Assembly (NCBI RefSeq): GCF_008369445.1
Contig: NZ_VTWH01000002.1
Span: 62,001-126,000 of the forward strand
Direction of reading: 5' to 3'
From: Aureimonas fodinaquatilis
Lineage (GTDB): Bacteria > Pseudomonadota > Alphaproteobacteria > Rhizobiales > Rhizobiaceae
DNA length: 64,000 bases
The position numbers and the translations under genes were made by a program. The notes below the pieces were generated by a model that was not told where the DNA came from, did not search any database, and was given only the letters and a program-made list of their open reading frames with translations. Shown one piece after another: positions 844 to 27,979 of the stretch (its first letter is position 1; each line of letters begins with the position of its first letter).

Positions 844-924
844 GCGCGCTTTCACCCAGCTTCTTCTGCCGCAAGGGCAGCTTTCAGTTCAAACGGTACG
901 GCCACGCGCTGTAAGGAAACGATA

Positions 925-2095: not shown

Positions 2096-3172
2096 TCATT
2101 TTGCTTTGCTGGTGCCGCGCGGAACGGCGGTGGAGCCGCGGATGATGAGCGCAGCCTCCAGCCGATGCGGTACTGAAAGTTCGCCCAGTTCAAGATAACG
2201 CACAACAAACTCACCCACAGCCTGACCGATCTCTCTCGCGGGGACCTGAATTGTTGTCAAGGGCGGGTCCATGTGCTCGGCCAGATCCACATTGTCGAAA
2301 CCGGTGATGCTGAAATCTTCCGGCACTTTGTAGCCCGATGTCCGTGCCTCGATCAGCGCCCCGGCTGCCAGATAGTCATTGGCACACATCACCGCTGTCG
2401 GGTGGGTGGGTTCCGCCAGCAATTGCCGCATGCCCATTCGCCCGGAGCCGATTGTCCAGTCCCGCACGGGGATGAAGTGCTTCGGGCGCACCGCAAGGCC
2501 GGCGTCTGCCAAAACGGCATTAATGCCTTCTATACGCTGGCGAATACGGTCATTGCCCACAAATGGCCGGGTGATGATTGCGAAATCCCGGTGACCCAGG
2601 TCCAGAAGATGGTGCGTCAGCTTGGCCATTTCACCAAAATTGTCGAAGCCAATGCAGTTGGGTCGTCCGTAATGACCCGATGTGTAGGTGATGACGGTGA
2701 AAATGCCGCGTTTGTCGAGCAGTTCAAACAGCGCATCGGGATGGTCTTCTCCCATCAGGATCATACATTCGACGCCCTGCTGAATCATTTTTTCAGCCTG
2801 CGCCAAGGTGCGGTCCGCATATTCGTCCGGCCGGCCCAGCAGCAGAGTATAACCCTGTTCGCCCAAAGTGCGCTGCAGCGTTTCCAGCATGGCCGCGATG
2901 GCCTGGTGCCCCAGAGTTGGAATGAGTGCGCCAACGGTGCGTGTGCGCAAGGTGGCAAGCGCCTTGGCAGCGCCATGCGGAATCCAGCCCAGATCTTTGA
3001 TCGCGGCGTGCACGCGATCTTTGGTTGTTTCGGAAACCGTGTCCGGAGCATTCAACACCCGCGACACGGTTGCTGATGACACTTCAGCCGTGCGGGCGAC
3101 ATCTTCCAGCTTGACCCTTGAGGACGTGGAACGCCGCGTGCGGCGACGCTTGGTGGTAGGTTCAGGAGCCAA
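2096..3172 (-). CDS. LacI-family transcriptional regulator
   Basis: DNA-binding repressor of 358 aa. The N-terminal helix-turn-helix is at residues 22-43 (LEDVARTAEVSSATVSRVLN), followed by a periplasmic-binding-protein-like effector domain resembling gluconate-type LacI members. The start is a TTG; an AAGGA six bases upstream supports it and no in-frame ATG is available. The gene runs in the same direction as larB and follows it by 128 bp. It is convergent with the ABC transporter and lies one gene from the dehydratase/LarA operon, so it is the best candidate regulator of both. AAGCGCTT palindromes lie in its own upstream region and in the end of larB. The effector is presumably a sugar acid (inference). 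Confidence 0.9.
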   Translation of the reverse strand: MAPEPTTKRRRTRRSTSSRVKLEDVARTAEVSSATVSRVLNAPDTVSETTKDRVHAAIKDLGWIPHGAAKALATLRTRTVGALIPTLGHQAIAAMLETLQRTLGEQGYTLLLGRPDEYADRTLAQAEKMIQQGVECMILMGEDHPDALFELLDKRGIFTVITYTSGHYGRPNCIGFDNFGEMAKLTHHLLDLGHRDFAIITRPFVGNDRIRQRIEGINAVLADAGLAVRPKHFIPVRDWTIGSGRMGMRQLLAEPTHPTAVMCANDYLAAGALIEARTSGYKVPEDFSITGFDNVDLAEHMDPPLTTIQVPAREIGQAVGEFVVRYLELGELSVPHRLEAALIIRGSTAVPRGTSKAK

Positions 3173-3223
3173 TGCAATTCCTTAAGGCAGTCGTTGCTGC
3201 ACATTGGATCCGGGCAAAATGCC

Positions 3224-3231
3224 AAGCGCTT
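3224..3231. promoter_or_regulatory. AAGCGCTT palindrome upstream of the LacI gene
   Basis: A perfect 8-bp palindrome, AAGCGCTT, followed by TC, lies about 50 bp upstream of the LacI-gene start. The same AAGCGCTTTC string occurs at 3310-3319 inside the 3' end of larB, and a GCGCTTTC lies in the larB/dehydratase promoter region. LacI-family operators commonly have a central CG in a short palindrome, so this may be an autoregulatory site. The motif is short and the assignment is inference. Confidence 0.3.
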
Positions 3232-3300
3232 TCGGCCCGGATATGTTTTGCTGCGACTATAATATAAAGGCCGGGTTTGAACAGCCATCGCTGCGGCCCG

Positions 3301-3951
3301 TCACAAGCGAAGCGCTTTCATGGCGGCACACGCAGCTCCAAAGCCGTTGTCAATATTCACCGTAACAATGCCGGGTGAGCAGCTTGCCAGTGCCGAATGC
3401 AGGGCAGTGGCCCCGCCTTGCCCAACTCCATAACCCACCGATGTGGGAACGGCGATAACCAATGCGTTGACCAGACCGGCGATAACTGAAAACAGTGCGC
3501 CTTCCATGCCTGCAACTGCAATGACGATGCGATGCTGGCCAATAAACTCCGCTCTTTCCATCAGCCGCCACAGGCCGGCCACACCAACATCGCGCACCAT
3601 GCTTGCGCCCTGACCCATAAATTCCAATGTGCGCTGCGCTTCTCTTGCCACCGCATCGTCCGACGTGCCAGCGGACACAATGCAGATTGCATTCGGTTGT
3701 GACACGGGTGAAATCGCGCCCAGAAAAGCTGTTTGCGACACCGGCTCATAGTTCAGTGCATCGCGCGCTGAATCCGGCAGATCGGCAAATTTTTCAGCAG
3801 AGAGGCGGGTGAACAGCATGCGGTGCTGGCCGTTTGTTGCCTCGCCCAGAATGTCGGCAATCTGCGCCGTCGACTTGCTCTGACAGAACACCGCCTCGGC
3901 AATTCCAGTTCGCGCCTGTCTGTTCCAATCCCCGACAAAACCTGTGGTCAT
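3301..3951 (-). CDS. larB: Nickel-pincer cofactor biosynthesis protein LarB
   Basis: LarB starts synthesis of the nickel-pincer nucleotide by carboxylating the pyridinium ring of nicotinic acid adenine dinucleotide and releasing AMP. The C-terminal half is PurE-like. Recognisable landmarks are GMEGALFSVIAGLV, PTSVGYG, and the end ASCSPGI followed by NIDNGFGA. Cys191 in ASCSPG fits the catalytic Cys of the family. The protein is 216 aa, somewhat short against about 245 aa for characterised LarB; the N-terminal helical part is reduced. The ATG has GGAGCGG upstream. It is divergent from the dehydratase/LarA operon that carries larC and larE, so the three cofactor genes share one promoter region. 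Confidence 0.9.
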   Translation of the reverse strand: MTTGFVGDWNRQARTGIAEAVFCQSKSTAQIADILGEATNGQHRMLFTRLSAEKFADLPDSARDALNYEPVSQTAFLGAISPVSQPNAICIVSAGTSDDAVAREAQRTLEFMGQGASMVRDVGVAGLWRLMERAEFIGQHRIVIAVAGMEGALFSVIAGLVNALVIAVPTSVGYGVGQGGATALHSALASCSPGIVTVNIDNGFGAACAAMKALRL

Positions 3952-4008
3952 ATGTGCCGCTCCGTGTGCCCGACTGCCTTTAAAATTTAAAAGAAACTAC
4001 AGAGCACG

Positions 4009-4026
4009 GCGCTTTCATGAAAGTGC
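4009..4026. promoter_or_regulatory. Palindrome in larB/dehydratase promoter region
   Basis: The perfect 12-bp palindrome CTTTCATGAAAG (4012-4023) lies within an imperfect 18-bp dyad (GCG arm and TGC arm). It lies about 60 bp upstream of larB and 175 bp upstream of the dehydratase gene. The left half, GCGCTTTC, matches the string found twice near the LacI gene. Probably an operator or part of the larB promoter; function is inferred from position and symmetry only. Confidence 0.4.
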
Positions 4027-4047
4027 GCTATAGACTTGCCTATCAGG

Positions 4048-4074
4048 TCATCATATAAGCTGGTTATATAATGA
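4048..4074. promoter_or_regulatory. 27-bp inverted repeat, candidate operator for the Lar operon
   Basis: TCATCATATAA, a 5-bp spacer GCTGG, then TTATATAATGA: two 11-bp arms that pair with one mismatch. The element sits in the 249-bp divergent region between larB and the dehydratase gene. It is AT-rich in a GC-rich context and overlaps sequence that could act as a -10 region. Such size and symmetry fit a dimeric regulator. The nearby LacI and GntR proteins are the local candidates. Confidence 0.5.
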
Positions 4075-4200
4075 AACCAAGGCGATTTCGAACGTCGCAC
4101 GCGCTGCACGATTTAAAATTGCACGATCCAAAAACGATAGAGCGATCGCCCCGACAGCGGGCTGCTAGCGCTTGTAAAGCTTGTTGGGATAGCGTCTGGA

Positions 4201-5922
4201 ATGTCCGATAAAATCAAAGGGATGCGCAAAGGGCTCGCGAATTACGGAGACGCCGGATTTTCCCTGTTTCTGCGCAAGGCCTTTATCAAGGCCATGGGCT
4301 ATTCCGACAAGGCGCTGGACCGGCCAATCATCGGCATTACCAACACCTATTCCGGTTACAATGCCTGCCACCGCAATGTGCCGGAATTGATCGAGGCCAT
4401 AAAGCGCGGCGTGTTGATGGCCGGTGGGCTGCCGATCGATTTTCCAATTATTTCAATGCATGAGGCGTTTTCGCACCCGACAAGCATGTTCACCCGCAAC
4501 CTGATGTCAATGGATGCGGAAGAAATGATTCGAGCGCAGCCAATGGACGCTGTGGTGCTGATTGGCGGTTGTGATAAAACCGTGCCCGCATTGCTGATGG
4601 GCGCGGCCAGTGCCGATGTTCCGGCTATTCTGACAGTGACCGGGCCAATGATAACCGGCAGCCACAAGGGCGAAAGACTGGGTGCCTGTACCGATTGCCG
4701 GCGCCTGTGGGGCCAGCACCGCGCTGGCACGATTGACGAGCAGGAAATTGAGGAAATCAGCGGCAAGCTGGCGCCCGGGCCGGGAACCTGCATGGTGATG
4801 GGAACTGCCAGCACCATGGCGCTGGTTTCAGAAGCCATGGGCATGATGTTGCCAGGCGGGGCCGCAATCCCTGCGGTGCATGCCGACAGATTGCGCCATG
4901 CAGAAGCCACCGGCGAGCGCGCGGTGGAAATTGCCCGGGAAGGTTTGAAGCCCACAAGTGTGATGACCGAGGCCTCGCTGCGCAATGCGCTGCGTGTGTT
5001 GCAGGCGGTTGGCGGCTCCACCAATGGTGTTGTGCATCTGGCGGCGATTGCCGGACGGCTGGGCCTTGATATCGACATGCAGGAGTTTGACCGCATGGGT
5101 ACGGAAACGCCGGTGCTGGTGGATCTGAAGCCGTCCGGCCAAGGCTATATGGAAGATCTGCACAAGGCGGGCGGCCTGCAGGTCGTGTTGAAAAACATTG
5201 CCCATCTTCTGGAAAAGGACGCGCTGACCATTACCGGGCGCACGCTGGGTGAAGAAATTGAGGCAGCACCGCCAAGCTGGCCGCAAAATGTGGTGCGGCC
5301 ATTGAGTGACCCCATTCATTCCGGTGGCGGAATTCGCGTTTTGCGCGGCAACCTCGCGCCCAATGGTGCGATTATCAAGCAGGCAGCAGCCACGCCCGAA
5401 TTGTTGAAGCATCGCGGCCGCGCGGTGGTTTTTACCTCTTTGCAGGATATGGCCGAGCGGCTGGATCTGCCGGATCTGGACGTGCGGGCAGATGATGTTC
5501 TGGTGTTGCAGAACGCCGGACCGAAAGGCGCACCGGGCATGCCGGAGGCTGGATATCTGCCAATTCCCAAAAAACTGGCGGCGCAGGGCGTGAAAGACAT
5601 GGTGCGCATTTCCGATGCACGGATGAGCGGCACCGCCTTTGGCAGCATTGTATTGCACATCAGCCCGGAAGCCGCCGATGGTGGGCCTCTGGCGCTTGTG
5701 CGAGACGGCGACATGATTGAACTGAACGTTGAAGCGGGGTCTATCCGTCTGGATGTGCCTGAAGACGAATTGCAGCGCCGCGCCAAAGAGTGGAATATGC
5801 CCGAATTCGTCGACATCGAGCGTGGGTATCGGAGACTTTACTTCCAGCAGGTTCTTCAGGCGGAGCACGGCTGCGACTTTGATTTTCTGCGCAAATATCC
5901 GCTTAACAACAAAACCCTGTAA
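4201..5922 (+). CDS. IlvD/Edd-family sugar-acid dehydratase
   Basis: Iron-sulfur dehydratase of 573 aa in the dihydroxy-acid/phosphogluconate dehydratase family. Members act on dihydroxy acids or on aldonates such as L-arabinonate, D-xylonate and gluconate, giving 2-keto-3-deoxy acids. The cluster cysteines are recognisable in NACHRN (Cys56), GGCDKT and PGTCMVMGTAS. A C-terminal SDARMSGTAFG motif is also present. Length and the spacing of NACHRN match the [2Fe-2S] pentonate/hexonate dehydratase group better than biosynthetic IlvD (inference). It is the first gene of the plus-strand operon, 9 bp before the LarA homologue. That arrangement suggests the two act consecutively: C2 epimerisation then dehydration, or the reverse specificity pairing. 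The substrate is unknown. Confidence 0.9.
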   Translation: MSDKIKGMRKGLANYGDAGFSLFLRKAFIKAMGYSDKALDRPIIGITNTYSGYNACHRNVPELIEAIKRGVLMAGGLPIDFPIISMHEAFSHPTSMFTRNLMSMDAEEMIRAQPMDAVVLIGGCDKTVPALLMGAASADVPAILTVTGPMITGSHKGERLGACTDCRRLWGQHRAGTIDEQEIEEISGKLAPGPGTCMVMGTASTMALVSEAMGMMLPGGAAIPAVHADRLRHAEATGERAVEIAREGLKPTSVMTEASLRNALRVLQAVGGSTNGVVHLAAIAGRLGLDIDMQEFDRMGTETPVLVDLKPSGQGYMEDLHKAGGLQVVLKNIAHLLEKDALTITGRTLGEEIEAAPPSWPQNVVRPLSDPIHSGGGIRVLRGNLAPNGAIIKQAAATPELLKHRGRAVVFTSLQDMAERLDLPDLDVRADDVLVLQNAGPKGAPGMPEAGYLPIPKKLAAQGVKDMVRISDARMSGTAFGSIVLHISPEAADGGPLALVRDGDMIELNVEAGSIRLDVPEDELQRRAKEWNMPEFVDIERGYRRLYFQQVLQAEHGCDFDFLRKYPLNNKTL

Positions 5923-5931
5923 GAGGTTTTC

Positions 5932-7266
5932 ATGCCATCTGTTCAATTTCCTGCAATGCGGTTTGCTCACCTGGACAGCGTGGAGCTTCCGCAGGTTGCG
6001 CGGGTCAAGCTGGTGCATCCACGCGGTGAACCGATTGGCGATGTGGCGCAAGCCGTGCGTGACGCAGTTTTGCAGAGCAGGAGATTGCAGAATCTGCCAG
6101 CGGGCAGCTCTGTCGCTGTTGCGCTGGGCAGCCGTGGCATTGCCAAAATTCCGCTGATTGCAAAAGCTGCCATCGATACTGTGCGCGCCATGGGGCATGA
6201 GCCATTTATTGTGCCGGCCATGGGAAGCCATGGTGGCGGCACGGCGGCGGGGCAGGTGGATGTGCTGCGCAAGCTGGGGTTGAGCGAGGAAGCGCTGGGT
6301 GCGCCAGTGCACGCCACCATGAATGTGGTGGATTACGGCGTAACGCCGGATGGCTCGCGCTGCAAGTTTGACAAAAATGCCGCCGGGGCTGACGCGGTGG
6401 TGGTGATCAACCGTGTCAAATCACACACGACCTTTGACCGCGAGATTGAAAGCGGGCTGGTTAAAATGGTGGCCGTGGGGCTGGGCAAGGCAGAGGGCGC
6501 GCGCTCTGTGCACCGAACCGGCCCGCCGGCATTTATGGATGTGCTGCCGGAGCTGGCGCGAATTTCGCTGGAAAAATCACCGATTGCATTGGGCATTGCG
6601 CTGGTTGAAAACGCGCAAAAAGACCTGGTCGTAGTTGAGGGCGTTGCGCCCGAGGACTTTTTTGAAAGCGACAAGCGGCTTTTGAAAGTGGCCAAATCCT
6701 TCATCGCCCGGCTGCCTTTCGGTAAAATGGATGCGCTGGTTGTGGAGCTGATTGGCAAGGACATCAGCGGCGCGGGCATGGATTACGCGGTTATGGGCCG
6801 CGCCGATCTGCGCACCATTCCCAATCCGGCAGAACCCTTTGCCTCGCGCGTTACGGTTCTGGGTCTGTCAGAGGCAACGGGCGGCAACGGGCTGGGTGTC
6901 GGGCTGGCGGATTTCAGCACGGTGGATGTTGTTTCGCGCATTGACCTGCAACAGATTTACATGAACTCGCTGACCTCCACTCTGGTTGAGAAATCGCGCA
7001 TTCCCATTGTTCTGGAGAACGATCTGGATGCTTTGCGCGCCACCGTGTCCACGAGCTGGTCGCGCTCCGACCCGGAAACCCGGCTTTGCATCATTCGCTC
7101 GACGTTGCATCTGGAAGAAATTCTGGTTTCCGCCTCGCTGCTGGACGAGGTGCAAGCCAGTGGCAAGGCCGCAGACATTGGCCCCCTGTTCGATCTGCGC
7201 TTTGATGAGCAAGGGCGCATGCTGAGCCACGCTTATGCCAGAGATGAAGCCGGAGACGTGAAATGA
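5932..7266 (+). CDS. LarA-superfamily nickel-dependent hydroxyacid racemase/epimerase homologue
   Basis: A 444-aa protein of the lactate racemase LarA superfamily. LarA enzymes bind the nickel-pincer nucleotide through a Lys and racemise or epimerise at a 2-hydroxyacid carbon by hydride transfer. Candidate equivalents here are Arg68 (GSRG), His100 (MGSHGG), His165 (KSH), Lys178 as cofactor anchor and His194 as nickel ligand. The 16-residue Lys-to-His spacing equals that of Lactiplantibacillus LarA (Lys184-His200, from memory). larB, larC and larE lie in the same locus, so the cofactor can be supplied. It sits between an aldonate-type dehydratase and an oxidoreductase, which points to a sugar-acid 2-epimerase rather than a lactate racemase; that is inference. 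AGAGG precedes the ATG. The TGA overlaps the next ATG (ATGA). Confidence 0.85.
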   Translation: MPSVQFPAMRFAHLDSVELPQVARVKLVHPRGEPIGDVAQAVRDAVLQSRRLQNLPAGSSVAVALGSRGIAKIPLIAKAAIDTVRAMGHEPFIVPAMGSHGGGTAAGQVDVLRKLGLSEEALGAPVHATMNVVDYGVTPDGSRCKFDKNAAGADAVVVINRVKSHTTFDREIESGLVKMVAVGLGKAEGARSVHRTGPPAFMDVLPELARISLEKSPIALGIALVENAQKDLVVVEGVAPEDFFESDKRLLKVAKSFIARLPFGKMDALVVELIGKDISGAGMDYAVMGRADLRTIPNPAEPFASRVTVLGLSEATGGNGLGVGLADFSTVDVVSRIDLQQIYMNSLTSTLVEKSRIPIVLENDLDALRATVSTSWSRSDPETRLCIIRSTLHLEEILVSASLLDEVQASGKAADIGPLFDLRFDEQGRMLSHAYARDEAGDVK

Positions 7267-8396
7267 CCGTAGTGAAGATGAACGTGGCCCTGATCGGGTG
7301 CGGCTGGGTGGCCGGGCTGCAAATGATCAACGGGTTCAACCATGTTTCCGACCTGTTCAATGTCCAAACCGCTTGCGACAATGACCTGGCGAAAGCCCAG
7401 GCATTTGCGCGGGAATATGGGTTGCCGGAGGCTGTGGCCAGCTATGAGGCTGTGCTGGCAGACCCGCAGATTGATGCGGTGAGCATTTGCACGCCGCCAT
7501 CCTTGCACCATTCCATGGTCAAGGCCGCTCTGGCGGCAGGAAAAAACGTCATTTGCGAAAAACCTTTCACCAGCTCGCTGGAACTGGTGGATGACATCAT
7601 GGCAATGGAAGCGCTTTCATCAGCGCGGGTGATGCCGGTGTTTCAATATCGCTTCGCGCCCGGTCTTCAGCGCATACGCCGCATTCTGGCCAGCGGAATT
7701 GCGGGCAAGGCCTACACTTCATCCGTTGAAACCGCATGGCGGCGCGGATCAGACTATTACGCGGTGCCATGGCGCGGCAAATTTGCAACCGAACTGGGGG
7801 GAGTTCTTCTGACCCAGTCAATCCACATCCACGACCTGTTTCTTTACTTGCGTGGGCCGGTTGCGGAGGTCAAAGCCTTCAAAGCCACCCGCGTGAACCC
7901 GATTGAGGTGGAGGACTGCGCTGTTGCAGCCCTGCGCATGGAAGACGGCTCGCTGGCCTCGCTCACCGCGACGCTTGGCTCCATCCGTCCCGTCACGCGC
8001 ATCAGACTGTGTTTCGAAAACATGGTGATCGAGCGGCAGTGTTTCGATGAGGAAGCGCCGCGGCCCGGAAACGAGCCCTGGACGATTGTGCCCGTCAGTG
8101 ACGAAGTCGCCCGGAAGGTGGCGGACATTTCCGCCGAACCGGCCGAGCAGTACACAAGCTTTGCATTCCAGTTTGCGCAGTTTCACCGGGCAATCAACAC
8201 CGGTGAACCATTTGCCGTAACGCTGGAAGATGCGCGCCGCTCTCTGGAACTGGTGACGGCACTGTTTCACTCTGCTGAAACCGATGAGACCGTGTCGCTG
8301 CCAATGGATCAGCATCACGAACGCTATGGCGGCTGGATCAGCCATTCGTCCAGGGCGGCAGGCAGCGCAGCCGCAGTTCCGGCACTTCAGGAATAG
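7263..8396 (+). CDS. Gfo/Idh/MocA-family NAD(P)-dependent oxidoreductase
   Basis: A 377-aa dehydrogenase with an N-terminal Rossmann fold (ALIGCGWVAGLQM) and the family's EKP motif (CEKPF, about residue 100), whose Lys is catalytic. A C-terminal alpha/beta domain follows, with a possible catalytic His in the TQSIHIHD segment. Family members oxidise or reduce sugars, inositols and sugar acids, often at C1 or C3. The start overlaps the end of the LarA homologue by 4 bp (ATGA), and the gene ends 4 bp before the GMC gene, so translation is probably coupled. The tail after about residue 350 is Ala/Ser-rich and not conserved in style. The substrate cannot be named. Confidence 0.88.
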   Translation: MTVVKMNVALIGCGWVAGLQMINGFNHVSDLFNVQTACDNDLAKAQAFAREYGLPEAVASYEAVLADPQIDAVSICTPPSLHHSMVKAALAAGKNVICEKPFTSSLELVDDIMAMEALSSARVMPVFQYRFAPGLQRIRRILASGIAGKAYTSSVETAWRRGSDYYAVPWRGKFATELGGVLLTQSIHIHDLFLYLRGPVAEVKAFKATRVNPIEVEDCAVAALRMEDGSLASLTATLGSIRPVTRIRLCFENMVIERQCFDEEAPRPGNEPWTIVPVSDEVARKVADISAEPAEQYTSFAFQFAQFHRAINTGEPFAVTLEDARRSLELVTALFHSAETDETVSLPMDQHHERYGGWISHSSRAAGSAAAVPALQE

Positions 8397-8400
8397 TCGC

Positions 8401-10119
8401 ATGACATATGACTACATTATTGCAGGCGGTGGCACGGCGGGGGCGGTTCTTGCCAATCGCCTTTCGGCACGGCCGGATGTTAAAGTGCTGGTCATTGAGG
8501 CGGGGGAAGACACGCCGCCGGGGCGTGTGCCCGCCGAAATTCTCGACAGTTTTGCCGGACTGGCATATCTGAACGACCGGTTTTTGTGGAACGATCTGCG
8601 CGTCACCACTGAATTGCGCTCTCACAACCGGCCGGAGCAGGCTCCGCGCGCGCGCAAATATGAGCAGGCGCGTGTGCTGGGCGGCGGCTCCTCCATCAAC
8701 GGGCAGTTCGCCAATCGCGGGTCTCCGGCAGACTATGATGAATGGGAAAGCCTCGGCGCTTCCGGCTGGAACTGGGACAGCGTTCTGCCCTATTTCCGCA
8801 AGCTGGAACGCGACTATGATTTTGATGGCCCGCTGCATGGCAAAGATGGGCCGATTGCTGTTTCCCGCATTTTCAAAGATCAGTGGCCGGAACATGCAAA
8901 GGCCATGGCACGAGCCTTGGAGGAGGCGGGTTTTGACTATATCGCCGATCAGAATGGCGAATTTGTTGATGGCTATTATCCGGTAGCCATCAGCAATGTG
9001 TATGATCGTCGCGTTTCCACGGCAATCGCCTATCTGACCTCCACCGTGCGGCAGCGCCCTAATCTGACCATTCTGACCCGAACACAGGTTTGCCGCCTGT
9101 TGTTTGATGGCGCACGCTGCGTGGGGGTGGTCGCTGCCGACAAGTCTGGTGAGAAAACCTACCACGCAAGAGAGGTTATTGTTTCCAGCGGTGCAATTTA
9201 TTCGCCTGCGCTGCTGCTGCGCTCTGGCATCGGGCCGGCGGCAGAGCTGCGCGCATTGAATATTGATGTTGTGGCGGATGTGCCCGGTGTCGGCAAACGG
9301 CTGATGGACCACCCGGCTGTGGCCGTTGCCGCCTTTGTCAAACCGCAGGCGCGCATCAACGGTCGCACCCGCCGACATTTGATGCTGGGTCTGCGGCTTT
9401 CTTCCGGAATGGCGGGCATTCCCGCGGGCGACATGGCGGTGTCAATCTCGACCAAGTCGGCTTGGCATAAGGTGGGTGACCAATTGGCGACCGCCAATAT
9501 CTGGGTCAACAAAACCTATTCCGACAAGGGCGAAGTGAGGTTGAAATCTGCGGACTGGCGCGACCAGCCTGCGGTGGACTTCAACCTTCTGGCAGACCCG
9601 CGCGATATTGAGCGGCTGATGGCCGCCTTCAAAACCATGGCGGCGGCAATCCAGTCGCCATTGATGAGCGATGCAGTGGCAGACCCGTTCCCGGCCAGCT
9701 ACAGCGACAAGGTGCGGCAGGTGGCAGCCATCACCCCGCGCAACCGTGTTCTGACCTCCATTCTGGCAAAAATGCTGGACGGGCCAGACAGCCTGCGTCG
9801 CATGCTGATCCGCACATTCATACTCGAAGGCGCGCCGCTGGAGGTGCTGCTGCGCGATGATGATGAGTTGGAAGCCTTTGTGCGCCGCGCGGCCGTTGGT
9901 GTGTGGCATGCCAGTTGCTCGTGCCGAATGGGCGCAATGGAAGACCCGATGGCGGTGGTTGATCCTGAAGGCAGGGTTAAAAATACCTCGGGCCTGCGGG
10001 TCATCGATGCCTCAATTTTCCCGACAATCCCGTGTGGCAACACCAATCTGCCGGTTATCATGCTGGCGGAACGCATGTCCGACCTGATCCTGGCCGATGC
10101 CGAAGTGCACGCGGCATGA
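8401..10119 (+). CDS. GMC-family FAD-dependent oxidoreductase
   Basis: A 572-aa flavoprotein of the glucose-methanol-choline oxidoreductase family, cytoplasmic as no signal peptide is seen. The N-terminal dinucleotide motif is GGGTAGAVLANRLS (residues 8-21), with the ribose-binding Glu in VIEAGED. The ARVLGGGSSING signature follows, and the C-terminal catalytic pair is His in VWHASCSCRMG and Asn in GNTNLP. The family oxidises primary or secondary alcohols of sugars, polyols or choline. In this operon it may oxidise the sugar or polyol that the aldehyde dehydrogenase then takes to the acid (inference). The ATG at 8401 is preferred over longer versions because it opens exactly on the FAD motif and follows the upstream stop by 4 bp. 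Its stop codon is part of a dispersed palindromic element. Confidence 0.9.
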   Translation: MTYDYIIAGGGTAGAVLANRLSARPDVKVLVIEAGEDTPPGRVPAEILDSFAGLAYLNDRFLWNDLRVTTELRSHNRPEQAPRARKYEQARVLGGGSSINGQFANRGSPADYDEWESLGASGWNWDSVLPYFRKLERDYDFDGPLHGKDGPIAVSRIFKDQWPEHAKAMARALEEAGFDYIADQNGEFVDGYYPVAISNVYDRRVSTAIAYLTSTVRQRPNLTILTRTQVCRLLFDGARCVGVVAADKSGEKTYHAREVIVSSGAIYSPALLLRSGIGPAAELRALNIDVVADVPGVGKRLMDHPAVAVAAFVKPQARINGRTRRHLMLGLRLSSGMAGIPAGDMAVSISTKSAWHKVGDQLATANIWVNKTYSDKGEVRLKSADWRDQPAVDFNLLADPRDIERLMAAFKTMAAAIQSPLMSDAVADPFPASYSDKVRQVAAITPRNRVLTSILAKMLDGPDSLRRMLIRTFILEGAPLEVLLRDDDELEAFVRRAAVGVWHASCSCRMGAMEDPMAVVDPEGRVKNTSGLRVIDASIFPTIPCGNTNLPVIMLAERMSDLILADAEVHAA

Positions 10120-10150
10120 AGCGTTTTTGTTGAAGCGGCCTCGTTTCAAC
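10117..10150 (+). repeat. Dispersed palindromic element at the GMC stop codon
   Basis: The TGA stop of the GMC gene is followed directly by AGCGTTTTT and then GTTGAAGC-GGCCTC-GTTTCAAC, an 8-bp stem with one G.U pair and a 6-base loop. The layout (stop, AGC-A/G-TTT, inverted GTTGAA) matches copies at the ends of fabF, purF, cvpA and the SDR gene. Within the operon it could stabilise the upstream mRNA or attenuate the downstream genes. Confidence 0.6.
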
Positions 10151-10181
10151 ATTGAGATTTAAAGCATACCCGGAGACACAA

Positions 10182-11663
10182 ATGACCAGATTGACCCTGC
10201 CGGCCACGCCAAGGCCGTTTTCACTGCTGATCGACGGCAAGCTGATTCCGGTTTCGGAGCGCGAGCCGATTGTTCGTGAGAACCCGGCCCATTGCAAACC
10301 GGTCAGCCTCTATCCGCGCGCCACCGTTGCCGATGCCCATGCCGCAATTGATGCGGCCCGCCGCGCAGCCGATAGCCGCGTATGGCGCGATATGTCGGGT
10401 GCCGAGCGTGCACGGCTTCTGCTGCGCGTAGCACGGTTGATTGATGAAAACCGTGTTGAGCTGCGGGAAATTGAAAGCCTGGAAGTTGGCAAGCCCATCA
10501 GCCTGGTTGACCGCGAAATCAACGGCACGATTGCACATTGGGAATATGCGGCAACCCTTGCACGCCACGCATATGGCGACACCTATGACAGCCTTGGCGA
10601 CAACAATATGGCGTTCGTTTTCCGCGAGCCGATTGGCGTCGTCTCATTGATCACGCCGTGGAACTATCCCTTCCTGATCCTCAGCCAGAAGCTGCCATTT
10701 GTGCTGGCGGTCGGTGGTTGTGCGGTGGTCAAGCCCAGCGAACTTTCATCCGGTACGGCGCTGCGTCTTGGCGAGTTGCTGCTGGAAGCCGGACTGCCAG
10801 CCGGTGTTGTCAACATTCTGGCCGGTTCGGGCGCTGAACTGGGCGATGTCATGAGCCGCAGCCCCAAGGTGGACATGGTGTCCTTTACCGGTTCAACCAC
10901 CATTGGCCGGATCATTGGCCGGGTGGCCGGTGAAACGCTGAAAAAGGTTTCGCTGGAGCTGGGTGGCAAGGCAGCGCATATTGTCTGCGCGGATGCCGAC
11001 CTGCAACTGGCTGCCGAAAAAGTGGCTCTGGGCGCAACGCGCAATGCCGGCCAGGCTTGCGTGGGTGGCCACCGGCTGGTCGTGCATGAAAGCATTGCCG
11101 ACAATTTTGTCGAAGCGGTGCAAAAGGAAATCAGCAAGTTGGTGGTGGGTGATCCGTTGGACCCGGCAACAACTATGGGTCCGGTGGTCAGTAAAGTGCA
11201 GTTCGACCGGGTGAATGGCTATATCGCGGCGGGCGAAGACGCCGGTTGCGAAAAATGGGCCTTGCAGGATCGCGGGGCGGGTGCCTTGCCGGGATACTTC
11301 GTGCAGCCCACTATTTTCACGGGCGTTCAACCATCCATGGTCATTGCGCAGGAAGAGATTTTCGGCCCGGTTCTGTCTGTCATGCGGTTCAAAACCTTTG
11401 ATGATGCGCTGGCGATTGCCAACAGCACGCCATACGGGCTTTCCGCCGGGTTGTGGACGCGCGATCTGGATACTGCTTTTGCCTTTGGCCGCCAGTTGAA
11501 AGCAGGTACGGTTGAGGTGAACACATTCTTGGCAGGCGCGCCGGAACTGCCGCTCAGCGGTTTGGGCGACAGTGGCGTGGGGCATGAGCGTGGCCGGTTT
11601 GCTATTGAAGAGTTCACCGAACTGCGGACAATTCAGCTTCAGCTCAATCAGCCCAGACGTTAA
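10182..11663 (+). CDS. NAD(P)-dependent aldehyde dehydrogenase
   Basis: A 493-aa aldehyde dehydrogenase superfamily enzyme that oxidises an aldehyde to a carboxylate. Visible are the NAD-binding PWNYP (about 163-167), FTGSTTIG, the general-base Glu in LELGGK, the catalytic Cys in NAGQACVGG, and EEIFGPVL. The ATG at 10182, with GGAG upstream, is chosen over an in-frame ATG 30 bp earlier. The class resembles betaine/lactaldehyde/semialdehyde dehydrogenases. Two roles fit the locus: making the sugar acid from an aldehyde produced by the GMC enzyme, or removing a semialdehyde at the end of a 2-keto-3-deoxyacid route. The sequence does not choose between them. Confidence 0.92.
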   Translation: MTRLTLPATPRPFSLLIDGKLIPVSEREPIVRENPAHCKPVSLYPRATVADAHAAIDAARRAADSRVWRDMSGAERARLLLRVARLIDENRVELREIESLEVGKPISLVDREINGTIAHWEYAATLARHAYGDTYDSLGDNNMAFVFREPIGVVSLITPWNYPFLILSQKLPFVLAVGGCAVVKPSELSSGTALRLGELLLEAGLPAGVVNILAGSGAELGDVMSRSPKVDMVSFTGSTTIGRIIGRVAGETLKKVSLELGGKAAHIVCADADLQLAAEKVALGATRNAGQACVGGHRLVVHESIADNFVEAVQKEISKLVVGDPLDPATTMGPVVSKVQFDRVNGYIAAGEDAGCEKWALQDRGAGALPGYFVQPTIFTGVQPSMVIAQEEIFGPVLSVMRFKTFDDALAIANSTPYGLSAGLWTRDLDTAFAFGRQLKAGTVEVNTFLAGAPELPLSGLGDSGVGHERGRFAIEEFTELRTIQLQLNQPRR

Positions 11664-11678
11664 GAGGAAGCGGATATT

Positions 11679-12971
11679 ATGGCTTCAGCCAGCAATTTCG
11701 AACTGACCATTCATCTCGATGCTGTCGGGGGAATTGCTGGCGACATGTTTGCTGCCGCCATGCTGGATGCATTTCCGCATTTGCGCCAGCGGGTTCTGGC
11801 GGATATCAGTGCCATTCTGCCGGAGAATGTCGGTCAGGTTCGGCTTGAGCCGGGGGAAAGCGCGCATATTTCAGCATTGCGTTTTCTGGTCGAACTGGCA
11901 GGCGATCACCATCACCATCACCATCACCATCACCATCACCATCACCACAACCATGATCACAGCCATGAGGATCATGACCATGACCATGACCACAGTCACC
12001 ACCACCGGCATATCGGTGCGCATTCTTCAAAATATACGGATCTGGTAGCGGTCATCGCCGCAGCCAATCTGTCGCAAGGCACTGCCGAACAGGCCATTGC
12101 CATTCTAACGGTGATTGGTGAGGCCGAGGCCCTTGTGCACGGTACAACGCTGGATCAGGTGCACTTCCACGAGATTGCTGACTGGGATTCGCTGGTGGAC
12201 GTGGTCGCCGCAGGCAGCATAGCCGCCGCTTTGCACGGCGCGCGCTGGACAGCATCGCCGTTGCCACGCGGTGGCGGACTGGTGAAAACGCAACATGGGC
12301 AGTTGCCGGTGCCCACGCCTGCCACAACGGAAATTCTGAAAGATTTCATCTGGCGCGATGATGGCGTACCGGGCGAGCGGGTGACGCCGACCGGCGCTGC
12401 AATTGTGCGGCATTTGATTGGACATCCTGAAATGCCAGTTTCGGCAGGGGCCCAGACGCTGCATGGCAGCGGCACCGGCGCCGGTACCCGAAACCTGCCG
12501 GGCATACCCAATATTCTTCGTGTGCTGGTTTTTCAGGCTGTAGCTCAGGCTGGTGCAGATGAAGTGGATGTCATCAGCTTTGATGTGGATGATATGACTG
12601 GCGAAGAAATCGGCGTTGCACTGGACCGGCTGCGCGCTGCACCCGGTGTGCTGGATGTTTCTGTTGGCCAGCGCATTGGCAAGAAATCCCGCCCGCTAGT
12701 GGATTTTCGCATTCTCGCCCGTCCCGAAAACACCGATGCAATTGCCAGCCTGTGCCTTTCGGAAACGTCCACCATTGGTCTGCGCCGACACCGGGAGGCG
12801 CGTGTCACCCTGCCTCGACAGGAATTTGCCGAAGGTGACGGGCAGGCCGCCCATAAGATTGTAATCCGGCCAGATGGCTCGCGGACCGCCAAGGTGGAAA
12901 GCGACGCCTTGCAGAATATCGGCACACTTGCAGCGCGCAGACGCGCAGCGCGGCAGGGGAGCGAAACTTGA
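11679..12971 (+). CDS. larC: Nickel insertion protein LarC with polyhistidine tract
   Basis: LarC is the CTP-dependent nickel insertase that completes the nickel-pincer nucleotide. The 430-aa protein begins with the family motif IHLDAVGGIAGDM (residues 11-23), has RVTPTGAAIVRHL centrally, and a C-terminal domain with DVDDMTGEEIG. In Lactiplantibacillus the gene is read through a frameshift (larC1/larC2); here it is one uninterrupted frame. Residues 77-90 are 14 consecutive His, followed by a His/Asp-rich stretch to about residue 113. This is a likely nickel-storage or delivery loop, longer than usual for the family. GAGGAAG precedes the ATG. The stop overlaps the larE start. Confidence 0.93.
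   Translation: MASASNFELTIHLDAVGGIAGDMFAAAMLDAFPHLRQRVLADISAILPENVGQVRLEPGESAHISALRFLVELAGDHHHHHHHHHHHHHHNHDHSHEDHDHDHDHSHHHRHIGAHSSKYTDLVAVIAAANLSQGTAEQAIAILTVIGEAEALVHGTTLDQVHFHEIADWDSLVDVVAAGSIAAALHGARWTASPLPRGGGLVKTQHGQLPVPTPATTEILKDFIWRDDGVPGERVTPTGAAIVRHLIGHPEMPVSAGAQTLHGSGTGAGTRNLPGIPNILRVLVFQAVAQAGADEVDVISFDVDDMTGEEIGVALDRLRAAPGVLDVSVGQRIGKKSRPLVDFRILARPENTDAIASLCLSETSTIGLRRHREARVTLPRQEFAEGDGQAAHKIVIRPDGSRTAKVESDALQNIGTLAARRRAARQGSET
11907..11948 (+). repeat. Hexanucleotide CACCAT repeat coding the LarC His tract
   Basis: Seven uninterrupted copies of CACCAT encode 14 His within larC, followed by degenerate CAT/GAC/CAC codons. A perfect 6-bp microsatellite can lengthen or shorten by slippage without breaking the frame, so the His tract is expected to vary in length between strains. 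Confidence 0.9.
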
Positions 12972-13768
12972 CCGCGCAGGGCATTGTAGCCGCATTGCAG
13001 CGTCTTGAAACGGCGCTGGCAGCACATCCGCCATTGGCTATTGCCGTCAGCGGCGGGGTGGACAGCATGACACTGGCTTTTCTGGCCCACAGGATCAGCG
13101 ATGTGGAGATGATCCACGCCAGTTCACCGGCGGTGCCCGCTGAGGCAACGGCGCGGGTTGAGGCATATGCAAACCGGTTTGGCTGGAAGCTGACAGTTGC
13201 GCGAGCGCGCGAGTTTGAAGATCCGGATTATCTGGCCAATCCGGTCAATCGCTGTTTTTTCTGCAAGTCGAACCTGTATCAGCGAATATCAGAACTCAGC
13301 CCGCGCAAAATCGCTTCCGGCGCCAATCTGGATGATCTTGGCGACTATCGCCCCGGTTTGCTGGCGGCAGCGGAACGGCAGGTTGTGCACCCGCTGATTG
13401 AAGCGCAGATCAACAAGCAAATGGTGCGGGAACTGGCCCGCGCCGAACGGCTTGACGATCTTGCCGAGTTGGCGGCCCAGCCCTGCCTCAGCAGCCGAAT
13501 TGAAACCGGCATTGGCATTAACGCTGACGACCTGGCCTTTGTGCATATGGTTGAAAGCGCGGTCCGGCAGATTGGTGGTGCGCCTGCGGATGTGCGCTGC
13601 CGGATAACCCGAAACGGTGTTGTGCTGGAACTGGAAGCGGAAAGCAGTGAGCGTGTCGTGCATGAAGCGACAGCACTGGCCAGCAGGCTGGCGGCAGACA
13701 GCGGGCGTCAATGGTCCATGACCCGGCCCTATCAGCGCGGATCTGCTTTTCTGCATTCCAGGCCCTGA
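12968..13768 (+). CDS. larE: ATP-dependent sulfur transferase LarE
   Basis: LarE converts the dicarboxylated pyridinium mononucleotide to the dithio form by adenylation and sulfur transfer. The 266-aa protein has the PP-loop SGGVDS (residues 28-33) near the N terminus, GANLDDLGDYRPG (118-130), and QPCLSSRI (171-178), the family's active-site Cys region. Three Cys are placed in motifs: Cys96 and Cys99 (RCFFCK) and Cys173 (PCLSS). That pattern could fit the LarE class that holds a 4Fe-4S cluster instead of sacrificing its own Cys (inference). It starts with TTG overlapping the larC stop, so larC and larE are translationally coupled. Confidence 0.92.
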   Translation: MTAQGIVAALQRLETALAAHPPLAIAVSGGVDSMTLAFLAHRISDVEMIHASSPAVPAEATARVEAYANRFGWKLTVARAREFEDPDYLANPVNRCFFCKSNLYQRISELSPRKIASGANLDDLGDYRPGLLAAAERQVVHPLIEAQINKQMVRELARAERLDDLAELAAQPCLSSRIETGIGINADDLAFVHMVESAVRQIGGAPADVRCRITRNGVVLELEAESSERVVHEATALASRLAADSGRQWSMTRPYQRGSAFLHSRP

Positions 13769-13774
13769 CATATC

Positions 13775-14959
13775 GTGGCAATTCACCCGCAATCCCGGTC
13801 TTATCTGTTGTTGCTGGGGCTGACACTGGGCCTGCCCAGTCTTGGTACAGACATGGCAATGGCGTCGTTTTCCGCCACGGCTCTGGCTTATTGTGTAACT
13901 CCGGCAGAAGTGGGTTACGCGCTCTCATCCTTCATGGTTGGTTTTGCTACCTCGCCTCTGTTCTACGGCCCACTGTCGGATAGATTTGGCCGCAAGCCGG
14001 TTTTGCTGTCCGGCATTTTTCTGCTGGCCGCGGCATCGTATGTATCCGTGTTTGCAACCAGTCTGCCGGGGTTGATTGGCTGGCGGCTGGTGCAGGGCGT
14101 GGGCGCGGGTGTCTGCCGTCCACTGGTTATGGCCATCATCCGCGATGGTTTTGATGGGGCAGAGGCGCGTTCTGCGCAGTCATATGCGCAGGTTGTGGCT
14201 ATGTGCGGCCCCCTTTGCGGGCCAATTCTGGGCGCACTTCTGCTGTTCTATGCTGACTGGCAGATCATCTATCTGGCGCTTGGCACGATTGCCGCAGCCA
14301 TTGGCCTTTGTGTCTGGTTTGGATTTGCTGAAACAACTTTGCCGGAACACCGGGTCAGGGTGCGCGCCATTGAAGTTTGGCAGCATTACCGTGCCGTGTT
14401 GGGCAACGCCACCGTGCGCACAAACATCATGCTGGCGGCCTGCGCTTTTGGCGGACAGTTTGTTTATGTCAGTGCCTCGCCGCTGTTGCTGATGACGCGG
14501 CTGCAACTTTCTGCAGCAGCATTCGGGCTTGCATTTGCCACTGCTGCCACCGGCATGCTGCTTGGCAGTCTGCTAAGCGGCAGGCTTAACAGTCTTCGTG
14601 TCAACCCGCGCTATATCATGCTGGCCGGGCAGTGCATCTGCCTCGGCGCCAGCATCGCGCTGTTTGTTCTGCTTGCCACCAGCAACCTGGCCGTGTGGTC
14701 CTGCATCAGTCTGGGGTGGTGCTCCACATTCGCCTTTGGCCTTGTCAGTTCCAATGCTGCGCAACTGGCGTTGGCTCCCATGCGGTCTGCCATTGGCTAT
14801 GTGGCAGGGCTGATGGCGTTTGTGCAGATTGGCACAGGCGTGGCAGCCTCCACGCTGGTGTTTGCCCTCTACAATATCGGCCCGGCATGGGCATTTCTGT
14901 TGATGGCCGGTTTTGCAATTGCCGGTATCGCTTTGCTATTGCGGCCAACTGCGGCATAA
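13775..14959 (+). CDS. MFS transporter (Bcr/CflA-like, 12 TM)
   Basis: A 394-aa integral membrane protein of the major facilitator superfamily. It has about 12 hydrophobic segments and the loop 2-3 motif GPLSDRFGRKPVLL. The overall form resembles drug-efflux MFS of the Bcr/CflA group. It starts with GTG 6 bp after larE and is the last gene of the Lar operon. Position suggests uptake or export of a pathway substrate or intermediate, or of a metal complex, but Bcr-like proteins are often drug exporters and the substrate is unknown. Confidence 0.85.
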   Translation: MAIHPQSRSYLLLLGLTLGLPSLGTDMAMASFSATALAYCVTPAEVGYALSSFMVGFATSPLFYGPLSDRFGRKPVLLSGIFLLAAASYVSVFATSLPGLIGWRLVQGVGAGVCRPLVMAIIRDGFDGAEARSAQSYAQVVAMCGPLCGPILGALLLFYADWQIIYLALGTIAAAIGLCVWFGFAETTLPEHRVRVRAIEVWQHYRAVLGNATVRTNIMLAACAFGGQFVYVSASPLLLMTRLQLSAAAFGLAFATAATGMLLGSLLSGRLNSLRVNPRYIMLAGQCICLGASIALFVLLATSNLAVWSCISLGWCSTFAFGLVSSNAAQLALAPMRSAIGYVAGLMAFVQIGTGVAASTLVFALYNIGPAWAFLLMAGFAIAGIALLLRPTAA

Positions 14960-14998: not shown

Positions 14999-15709
14999 GT
15001 GTCACTGCCAGCCAGAACAGAGGATTTGCTTGCGCACCGCCTGACCGGCCTTTTCGCTGAAAAAGGTTTGAAACCCGGCGACAGACTGCCGCCTGAGCTG
15101 GAATTGTGCAAAATTCTGGATGTCAGCCGCCCGGCGCTGCGCGAGGCGCTGGCCGGGCTGGAAGCTGTGGGCATGCTGGCAACCCGCAAGGGAAGCGGGC
15201 GTGTTCTGCTGCCGATGGATTTCAACACCGCGCTGGTCGGGCTGGCCGGCTTTGTGCCGCTGAAGGACAAGCGGCTGCTGGATCTGTTGTTCATACGCCA
15301 GTTGCTGGAGGTGAATATTCTGCCGGTTGCTGCGCCGAAAATCAGCCCCAAGGCCCTGCAGAGACTGGAAGAGGTGACGCAGCAGATCGAAGAAAAGGCA
15401 CAGGCTGGCGAGTTTTTTGCCGACGAAGATTACGAGTTTCACCGGCTTCTTTACAGTGGTCTGGGAAACGAGGTGATGAACGGCGTCCTGGATCTTTTCT
15501 GGAGCACGTTTTCACGGCTGGATCCGCACAGGCTTTCCCACACGCAGCGGCTGGACGAAACTGCAGCCCACCACCGCCGCATTTTTGATGCAGTAAAAGA
15601 GGGCGATATTCGCAAGGCGCAATATCACCTTGATGCACATTTTTACGACACGGCATTTGCCGTGTCGCATTATGAAGAAAAGCCCTCTGAAGATCAGGCG
15701 ACCTTATAG
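14999..15709 (+). CDS. GntR-family regulator, FadR/FCD subgroup
   Basis: A 236-aa regulator with an N-terminal winged helix-turn-helix (residues 8-75, PGDRLPPELELCKILDVSRP then LREALAGLE) and an all-helical C-terminal FCD domain. The FCD metal/effector signature is seen as DYEFHRLL and AHHRRIFDAV followed by a late His. Members respond to sugar acids, carboxylates and related ligands. The gene follows the MFS gene by 39 bp but lies convergent to the enolase gene, their ends overlapping by 16 bp. It may regulate the enolase/ABC operon, whose upstream region contains a TTTGT-AAG-ACAAA dyad typical of FCD-type operators. It begins with GTG. Confidence 0.9.
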   Translation: MSLPARTEDLLAHRLTGLFAEKGLKPGDRLPPELELCKILDVSRPALREALAGLEAVGMLATRKGSGRVLLPMDFNTALVGLAGFVPLKDKRLLDLLFIRQLLEVNILPVAAPKISPKALQRLEEVTQQIEEKAQAGEFFADEDYEFHRLLYSGLGNEVMNGVLDLFWSTFSRLDPHRLSHTQRLDETAAHHRRIFDAVKEGDIRKAQYHLDAHFYDTAFAVSHYEEKPSEDQATL

Positions 15710-17991: not shown

Positions 17992-18011
17992 CTTCGTCTC
18001 CAGAAGTTCGA

Positions 18012-19037: not shown

Positions 19038-19084
19038 GGTTCTCTCCCTTAGTTTATAAGTTTAAGTGCAGACTGCTTTTTGGC

Positions 19085-24841: not shown

Positions 24842-24918
24842 ATTTCCCCGTGGCGTAAAAATGTGGTCGGTAGTGGCTGAAAGCGGCATGAAGCCATGTC
24901 TATTTTTGCGAAGTTTAT

Positions 24919-24932: not shown

Positions 24933-24978
24933 GTAATTGCCTGGCATGGTCAAGCTGGGTCAGATGGAGCGTGAGCGG

Positions 24979-27944: not shown

Positions 27945-27979
27945 GAATTGTTTTGCGCATATATTCAGTTGACGACGCC

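What the first reader, a model, noticed from the sequence alone, without database searches (positions are those of the whole stretch)
3301..14959. Self-contained nickel-pincer epimerase module inside a sugar-acid catabolic operon
All three known NPN-cofactor genes (larB, larC, larE) share a locus with one LarA-superfamily enzyme. Between them lie an aldonate-type IlvD/Edd dehydratase, Gfo/Idh and GMC oxidoreductases, an aldehyde dehydrogenase and a transporter, all tightly packed or overlapping. A sugar ABC importer and a LacI regulator flank it. Known LarA-family members include lactate, malate and other 2-hydroxyacid racemases and a gluconate 2-epimerase. The context here suggests oxidation of a sugar or polyol to an aldonate, nickel-dependent C2 epimerisation, then dehydration to a 2-keto-3-deoxyacid. 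I do not know a described pathway with this exact gene set.
Basis: partly seen in the sequence, partly recalled or inferred. Interest (0 to 1): 0.85.

Follow-up and report, generated by a model that had tools for sequence, protein, structure and literature searches.

The report
Nickel-enzyme sugar-acid catabolic gene island
A bacterium carries the genes for making a rare nickel cofactor together with a likely sugar-acid epimerase of unknown substrate, inside a large catabolic gene island shared with three other bacteria, which looks like a sugar-degradation route still to be worked out.

Summary
larB, IlvD/Edd dehydratase, LarA homologue, Gfo/Idh, GMC, ALDH, larC and larE lie at 3301-13768, the last seven tightly packed. 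The LarA homologue is NCBIfam 'NPN isomerase group 22' (456 bits, cut-off 400). It finds no solved LarA by sequence, but fold and profile comparison place its N-terminal half with LarA, and R75, H108, H174, K184 and H200 of LarA have invariant counterparts in 37 of 37 group-22 proteins examined. In the order sample 12 of 12 group-22 genomes have LarB, against 13 of 385 others.

The locus is larger than reported: 19 genes, including MR_MLE, a second ABC importer, MmgE/PrpD, CoA-transferase, DHDPS-family lyase and enoyl-CoA hydratase, recur in 4 of 4 complete islands compared. Elsewhere group 22 often, not always, sits with sugar-acid genes.

Most likely it is a nickel-dependent aldonate 2-epimerase serving the adjacent dehydratase. 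Substrate and order of steps are inferred. I found no activity for group 22 in the papers and passages seen. New variant of a known kind.

The parts
58..2049 (+). CUT1-type carbohydrate ABC importer: second permease (58-843) and MalK-like ATPase (925-2049); binding protein and first permease lie just upstream of the window
   Evidence: Pfam BPD_transp_1, ABC_tran; L057 proteins SBP_bac_1 and GlcT/UgpA-like permease; 79-87% identical set in the Devosia island, not found in the fetched Tropicimonas and Roseicitreum stretches, which have a TRAP transporter
2096..3172 (-). LacI-family regulator
   Evidence: Pfam LacI and Peripla_BP_3; 56-74% identical copy in 3 of 3 other complete islands
3301..3951 (-). 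larB, NPN cofactor biosynthesis
   Evidence: NCBIfam LarB 250 bits, cut-off 175; only LarB over cut-off in the genome
4201..5922 (+). IlvD/Edd-family sugar-acid dehydratase
   Evidence: NCBIfam PRK06131 856 bits, cut-off 539; best solved relatives 8ej0 and L-arabinonate dehydratase 9evv/5j83; Cys56, Cys124 and Cys197 aligned with cysteines of those
5932..7266 (+). LarA-superfamily enzyme, NPN isomerase group 22; invariant R68, H100, H165, K178, H194
   Evidence: NF052515 456 bits, cut-off 400; 37-sequence alignment; hhalign to LarA; Foldseek and VIA-align
7263..8396 (+). Gfo/Idh/MocA oxidoreductase, overlaps the LarA homologue by 4 nt
   Evidence: Pfam; solved relatives diffuse; in 3 of 3 other islands at 60-70%
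8401..10119 (+). GMC-family FAD oxidoreductase (start inferred from the MTYDYI motif; the listed ORF starts at 8284)
   Evidence: Pfam; best solved relatives 4udp (GMC oxidoreductase) and 6f97 (5-(hydroxymethyl)furfural oxidase)
10182..11663 (+). aldehyde dehydrogenase (longest ORF starts at 10152)
   Evidence: Pfam Aldedh; best solved relatives 3u4j and then L-sorbosone dehydrogenase 7w5l; alternative start seen
11679..12971 (+). larC, nickel insertion protein, single ORF with a 14-histidine run
   Evidence: NCBIfam LarC1 164 bits (cut-off 90) and LarC2 94 bits (cut-off 50); His run
12968..13768 (+). larE, CXXC-C (three-cysteine) type sulfur insertase
   Evidence: TIGR00268 237 bits, cut-off 150; CXXC at 96-99 and Cys173
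13775..14959 (+). MFS transporter, Bcr/CflA-like; not part of the conserved core
   Evidence: no copy in the fetched stretches of the other islands
14999..15709 (+). GntR/FCD regulator
   Evidence: Pfam; 55% copy in the Devosia island
15694..16770 (-). mandelate-racemase/enolase-type (MR_MLE) protein, probable acid-sugar dehydratase
   Evidence: Pfam MR_MLE; nearest NCBIfam L-talarate/galactarate dehydratase, 228 bits, below cut-off 500; in 3 of 3 other islands
16867..20803 (-). second ABC importer: ATPase, binding protein, fused permease
   Evidence: Pfam; binding protein nearest 2-aminoethylphosphonate and thiamine types, below cut-offs; in 3 of 3 other islands
20960..21910 (-). second Gfo/Idh oxidoreductase
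   Evidence: Pfam; 44-51% in 3 of 3 other islands
21907..23283 (-). MmgE/PrpD-family protein
   Evidence: Pfam; nearest solved iminodisuccinate epimerase; in 3 of 3 other islands
23318..24889 (-). CoA-transferase
   Evidence: Pfam CoA_trans; in 3 of 3 other islands
24937..26022 (+). second LacI-family regulator
   Evidence: Pfam; 75% copy in the Devosia island
26099..27040 (+). DHDPS-family lyase or dehydratase
   Evidence: Pfam DHDPS; in 3 of 3 other islands
27071..27856 (+). enoyl-CoA hydratase-family protein; last gene of the island, dusA follows
   Evidence: Pfam ECH_1; in 3 of 3 other islands; DusA at 27953-29047

Best explanation
The island degrades an unusual sugar, polyol or sugar acid by an oxidative, non-phosphorylating route. 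LarB, LarE and LarC make the nickel-pincer nucleotide (NPN); the group-22 LarA homologue holds it through Lys178 and His194. With His100 and His165 as the acid/base pair it inverts C2 of an aldonate by hydride transfer through the 2-keto acid. The two C2 epimers of an aldonate give the same 2-keto-3-deoxy acid on dehydration, so the epimerase lets a C2-specific dehydratase, the adjacent IlvD/Edd enzyme, take both. GMC and aldehyde dehydrogenase probably oxidise a primary alcohol to the acid; the DHDPS-family enzyme probably cleaves or dehydrates the keto-deoxy acid; CoA-transferase and enoyl-CoA hydratase may handle a fragment. Shown by computation: gene content, conservation, LarA-type N-domain fold, conserved catalytic set, link to LarB. 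Inferred: substrate class, stereochemistry, order of steps.
Against: No assay exists. The C-terminal, substrate-binding half is not aligned to LarA (one search covers residues 12-234) and its model is poor (mean pLDDT 49.8); LarA Asp72 falls in a gap of that alignment. Sequence searches found no solved LarA. Some group-22 genes sit beside arginase, 2-oxoglutarate oxygenase, acyl-CoA dehydrogenase or AMP-ligase genes, not sugar-acid genes, so the group may not share one substrate class. Two of 12 further group-22 genomes gave no LarB match. In Rhizobium sp. BK313 the LarA gene has only a 36-residue ilvD remnant beside it, with larC-larE-larB on another contig. The 8 annotated loci were picked by eye from the 40 listed of 113 records; one (Halocatena) has no such gene.
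Confidence: 0.55

Rival explanations
1. The group-22 enzyme is an NPN-dependent epimerase, but its substrate here is not the aldonate that the IlvD enzyme dehydrates: an aldarate or another 2-hydroxy acid of the MR_MLE, MmgE/PrpD and CoA half of the island.
For: The second half of the island recurs in the same 4 islands and holds two MR_MLE proteins nearest to talarate/galactarate dehydratase, below its cut-off, and an MmgE/PrpD protein nearest to iminodisuccinate epimerase; LarA enzymes acting on malate, 2-hydroxyglutarate and D-arabinarate are known (PMC7583248 sections; PMC11770544 abstract).
Against: The LarA gene sits directly behind ilvD in 4 of 4 complete islands and overlaps gfo1 here; Loktanella and Pseudosulfitobacter also have group 22 near IlvD-type dehydratases.
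Confidence: 0.22
2. The enzyme carries NPN but does other hydride chemistry, for example moving the hydride to a neighbouring carbon, as suggested for LarA homologues lacking a histidine.
For: The C-terminal half was not aligned to solved LarAs; a Gfo/Idh oxidoreductase is a neighbour; Desguin 2020 raises such reactions for groups lacking catalytic residues (PMC7583248 sections 8 and 9).
Against: Both acid/base histidines have counterparts in 37 of 37 sequences, which is the feature that two-way epimerases need.
Confidence: 0.1
3. Group 22 is a DUF362-type protein that does not use NPN; the lar genes serve something else.
For: Pfam DUF362 passes its cut-off (24.9 v 24) and Lar_N does not; the Roseicitreum copy is annotated DUF362.
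Against: No other Lar_N match in the genome for the lar genes to serve; LarB linkage; LarA-only fold matches at E up to 0.001; conserved NPN residues.
Confidence: 0.05
4. The enzyme is a lactate- or glycerate-type racemase that salvages a three-carbon product of the pathway (from aldolase cleavage followed by aldehyde dehydrogenase).
For: Aldolase cleavage of keto-deoxy acids gives C2-C3 aldehydes that ALDH could oxidise to 2-hydroxy acids (established chemistry; inference); LarA members racemise lactate and glycerate (PMC11770544).
Against: Group-22 contexts with UxaC, UxaA or four-carbon acid-sugar kinase point to C4-C6 acids. I noted no lactate permease or lactate dehydrogenase among the island genes scanned, but not every gene was scanned, and the Rubrobacter locus does have lactate-utilisation genes near.
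Confidence: 0.08

Closest known systems
GntE, D-gluconate 2-epimerase (LarA groups 19 and 20; Corynebacterium glutamicum, Thermotoga maritima)
   Same: NPN-dependent C2 epimerisation of an aldonate with a uronate-metabolism context (PMC7583248 sections 5, 8, 9)
   Different: A different LarA group; the window protein passes the group-22 NCBIfam model and does not match solved LarAs by sequence; here the partner is an IlvD dehydratase with GMC and ALDH
Lactate racemase LarA of Lactiplantibacillus plantarum with LarB, LarC, LarE
   Same: Same cofactor genes and N-domain fold; counterparts of R75, H108, H174, K184, H200
   Different: Substrate-binding domain not alignable here; single-ORF LarC (the L. 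plantarum one is split, recalled); LarE of the three-cysteine type (PMC9283937 passages)
Single-histidine LarA homologues LarA_Bw and LarA_Sp
   Same: LarA-like, suggested carbohydrate role from context (PMC12611868, parts 1-3 of 5 read)
   Different: They replace the second histidine by asparagine; group 22 keeps a histidine there in 37 of 37
Oxidative non-phosphorylating pentose pathways (Weimberg and Dahms type) with L-arabinonate or D-xylonate dehydratase
   Same: IlvD/Edd dehydratase and a DHDPS-family partner (pathway recalled)
   Different: No NPN epimerase, GMC oxidoreductase or CoA-transferase in the classical versions (recalled)

Membership tests
LarA superfamily, NPN isomerase group 22 | Score over the curated NF052515 cut-off | tested here: met
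   456 bits against 400
LarA superfamily | LarA N-domain fold | tested here: met
LarA superfamily | NPN-binding Arg75, Lys184 and His200 | tested here: met
   R68, K178 and H194 invariant in 37 of 37 and aligned to the LarA residues by hhalign (numbering of LarA from the chains shown)
LarA superfamily | Two catalytic histidines (His108, His174) | tested here: met
   H100 and H165 invariant in 37 of 37 and aligned to the LarA histidines
LarA superfamily | Gln295/Lys298 residues of the C-domain | tested here: inconclusive
   C-domain not aligned
LarA superfamily | Bound NPN and nickel-dependent activity | not testable with these tools
   needs purified protein
Pfam Lar_N (PF09861) as a model | Over the gathering score | tested here: not met
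   19.5 against 23.3 bits; the protein is filed by the group-22 model, fold and residues, not under this model
NPN biosynthesis set | LarB, LarC, LarE all over curated cut-offs | tested here: met
   250/175, 164/90 plus 94/50, 237/150 bits
GntE D-gluconate 2-epimerase | Group 19/20 membership and gluconate 2-epimerase activity | tested here: inconclusive
   only the group-22 model matched in NCBIfam, but I did not check that a group-19/20 model is in the library; activity not testable here
Sugar-acid IlvD/Edd dehydratase (PRK06131 subfamily) | Over subfamily cut-off, below the biosynthetic ilvD cut-off | tested here: met
   856/539 and 458/618 bits; separate biosynthetic IlvD at 833 bits
L-arabinonate dehydratase (PRK13016) | Over equivalog cut-off 882 | tested here: not met
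   698 bits

The most novel reading that the evidence does not exclude
The island encodes an undescribed sugar-degradation pathway in which a nickel-pincer epimerase makes both C2 epimers of an aldonate pass through one IlvD dehydratase, and group 22 as a whole is a family of aldonate and tetronate 2-epimerases that joins hexuronate, aldonate and tetronate routes in bacteria and haloarchaea.
Probability: 0.4. Interest if true: 0.72.

Novelty: new variant of a known kind. Interest (0 to 1): 0.6.

Why it matters
Group 22 was not among the LarA groups assayed in 2020 (Table 1 of PMC7583248, seen), and I found no later assignment in the papers and passages seen. A conserved operon that holds the cofactor genes, the epimerase and a likely consumer of its product, present also in named isolates (Devosia enhydra ATCC 23634, Roseicitreum antarcticum ZS2-28), gives a direct way to find its substrate. 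If right, it gives the nickel-pincer cofactor a role in sugar-acid catabolism of alphaproteobacteria and explains how one dehydratase can serve two C2 epimers.

Tried and rejected
Sequence search of solved structures with the LarA homologue alone or with its 37-sequence profile found no LarA (the profile's weak hits were TAL-effector repeats and a ribosomal protein); fold and profile-profile comparison were used instead. A biosynthetic role for the dehydratase was tested and rejected. 'One LarA among several in the genome' was tested with Lar_N and LarB and rejected; LarC and LarE copies elsewhere in the genome were not searched. I tried to name the substrate from relatives of the GMC, ALDH, Gfo/Idh, DHDPS, MmgE/PrpD and amidohydrolase proteins; the nearest ones (HMF oxidase, L-sorbosone dehydrogenase, iminodisuccinate epimerase, L-fucono-1,5-lactonase) do not agree on a substrate, so none was adopted. 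Oxidation of a ketose or polyol remains only a lead. Plasmid neighbours of IlvD and GMC relatives showed an IlvD next to tricarboxylate-type transporter genes and a GMC-ALDH pair but named no substrate; one record had no annotation. Literature searches with NPN, LarA, altronate, DUF362, aldonate and related terms gave no activity for this group in what I saw; supplementary tables (Table S1 of PMC7583248, which may list the group-22 context) could not be opened. Papers: PMC7583248 sections 5, 8, 9 and passages; PMC11770544 abstract, section 3 part 1 and section 6; PMC12611868 parts 1-3 of 5; PMC12393405 abstract and outline; PMC9283937 and PMC6978723 passages; all others in search listings only.
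Full report
OBSERVATION. On the minus strand: LacI (2096-3172) and larB (3301-3951). On the plus strand: IlvD/Edd dehydratase (4201-5922), LarA homologue (5932-7266), Gfo/Idh (7263-8396), GMC (about 8401-10119), ALDH (about 10182-11663), larC (11679-12971), larE (12968-13768), MFS (13775-14959) and GntR (14999-15709). Neighbouring genes from ilvD to larE are separated by 9, -4, 4, about 62, 15 and -4 nt, which is operon-like. LarB, LarC and LarE each exceed their NCBIfam cut-offs. The MFS protein is nearest to Bcr/CflA exporters, just below that cut-off, and was not found in the fetched stretches of the other islands.

COFACTOR LINK. In a sample of 397 genomes of the order, 12 (the window's own included) have group 22 and 25 have LarB over cut-off. 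All 12 are among the 25; 13 of the other 385 have LarB (Fisher p 1.9e-16; genomes are related, so this overstates independence). Of 12 further group-22 genomes from the class and phylum samples, 10 have LarB and 2 gave no match at E up to 1e-30. In the order sample no other genome of the window's family has a LarB match, so the module may have been acquired. In the own genome there is one LarB over cut-off and one Lar_N match, the latter below cut-off.

THE ISLAND. Four complete islands were compared: the window genome, Devosia enhydra (L084, L003, L081), Tropicimonas sp. IMCC34011 (L002, L082) and Roseicitreum antarcticum plasmid pRA01 (L004). Nineteen genes occur in 4 of 4: lacI, larB, ilvD, larA22, gfo1, gmc, aldh, larC, larE, MR_MLE, three genes of a second ABC importer, gfo2, mmgE, CoA-transferase, DHDPS-family, enoyl-CoA hydratase, and a second MR_MLE that in the window genome lies just upstream of the window. 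The order lacI, larB, ilvD to larE is kept (Tropicimonas has a GntR-type gene between larB and ilvD), while the other half is arranged differently in the two Rhodobacterales copies. The window and Devosia have a CUT1 sugar importer (79-87% identical) and a lactonase-like amidohydrolase (nearest L-fucono-1,5-lactonase, 61 bits, cut-off 400); Tropicimonas and Roseicitreum have a TRAP transporter instead. A fifth close relative, Rhizobium sp. BK313, has an open larA22 (77%) next to the last 36 residues of ilvD, with larC-larE-larB on another contig. The five larA22 proteins form one clade (support 100/99). In the plasmid collection the mmgE and MR_MLE proteins have relatives over 60% identity only in Roseicitreum.

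CONTEXT OF GROUP 22 ELSEWHERE. I read the annotation around 8 of the 113 plasmid records with a match (besides Roseicitreum), chosen by eye from the 40 listed. Seven of 8 have genes that I count as sugar-acid genes: Sporomusa (UxaA, MR_MLE, tricarboxylate-type transporter), Rubrobacter (UxaA, four-carbon acid-sugar kinase, PdxA; also lactate-utilisation genes), Paenibacillus (UxaC, an SDR oxidoreductase, larE, larB, larC, with zwf and gnd near), Loktanella (IlvD, DHDPS, altronate dehydratase, larB, LarC, and an 'adenine nucleotide alpha hydrolase', the name that larE also bears in Roseicitreum), Marinovum (KDPG aldolase, 2-keto-3-deoxy-galactonokinase), Pseudosulfitobacter (L-arabinonate dehydratase, DHDPS, altronate dehydratase, LarC) and, weakest, Haloferax (MR_MLE, ALDH). 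Halocatena has none. So sugar acids are a frequent but not the only setting. larB, larC and larE all lie within the fetched stretch in 12 of the 28 loci mapped (L001-L004, L033-L056).

THE OTHER ENZYMES. The dehydratase scores 856 bits for PRK06131 and 458 for biosynthetic ilvD (cut-off 618); the biosynthetic enzyme is elsewhere (833 bits). It keeps three cysteines aligned with those of L-arabinonate dehydratase, but is below the L-arabinonate equivalog cut-off (698 against 882). ALDH is nearest 3u4j and then L-sorbosone dehydrogenase; GMC is nearest HMF oxidase, and a 52% identical GMC lies beside an ALDH in Agrobacterium. LarE has the CXXC-C motif of the [4Fe-4S] type described for Thermotoga (passages of PMC9283937). 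AGCGCT cores typical of LacI operators (recalled) occur in the lacI-larB-ilvD gaps of three of the four islands: window 2 in 377 nt (about 0.15 expected from the window's rate), Devosia 2 in 201, Roseicitreum 1 in 320, Tropicimonas 0 in 327.

MECHANISM. C2 of an aldonate becomes a ketone on dehydration, so both C2 epimers give one 2-keto-3-deoxy acid (established chemistry). A C2 epimerase directly behind a stereospecific dehydratase therefore makes metabolic sense, and LarA enzymes that epimerise D-mannonate to D-gluconate are proven (PMC7583248, sections 5, 8, 9 read). I judge NPN dependence about 0.9 likely, an aldonate (C4-C6) substrate about 0.6, and the order oxidation, epimerisation, dehydration about 0.4. 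The role of MmgE/PrpD, CoA-transferase and enoyl-CoA hydratase is unexplained.

NOVELTY. NPN enzymes, IlvD sugar-acid dehydratases and aldonate 2-epimerisation are known. Group 22 itself has a curated NCBI model but no activity that I could find: it is absent from the assayed list in PMC7583248, 'group 22' does not occur in that paper's main text, and the searches listed under Tried and rejected found nothing more. I call it a new variant of a known kind, with an unassigned enzyme group made testable.

Noticed in passing
11679-12971 (larC): LarC carries a run of 14 histidines followed by a His/Asp-rich stretch, a possible nickel store; LarC1 and LarC2 are one ORF, so no frameshift is needed.
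   Followed up: partly
L057:6918-10085 (just upstream of the window): On the minus strand: a fucono-lactonase-like amidohydrolase, an N-acetylneuraminate-lyase-family protein (351 bits, cut-off 281 for PRK04147) and a second MR_MLE protein; the amidohydrolase and the MR_MLE recur in the Devosia island.
   Followed up: partly
L001:9875-11338 and L080:187-2893: Rhizobium sp. BK313 keeps an open larA22 with only the last 36 residues of ilvD in front, while larC-larE-larB lie on another contig: a decaying or rearranged module.
   Followed up: partly
L048:8323-10609, L052:8236-10575: Group-22 genes of one lineage lie directly beside an arginase-family gene or a 2-oxoglutarate/Fe(II) oxygenase gene, hinting at non-sugar substrates in part of the group.
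   Followed up: no
L044 and L047 (genome G520): One genome holds two group-22 genes in different contexts and only one LarB match.
   Followed up: no
3173-4200: AGCGCT palindromic cores between lacI, larB and ilvD, shared with the Devosia and Roseicitreum islands but not Tropicimonas: candidate LacI operators.
   Followed up: partly
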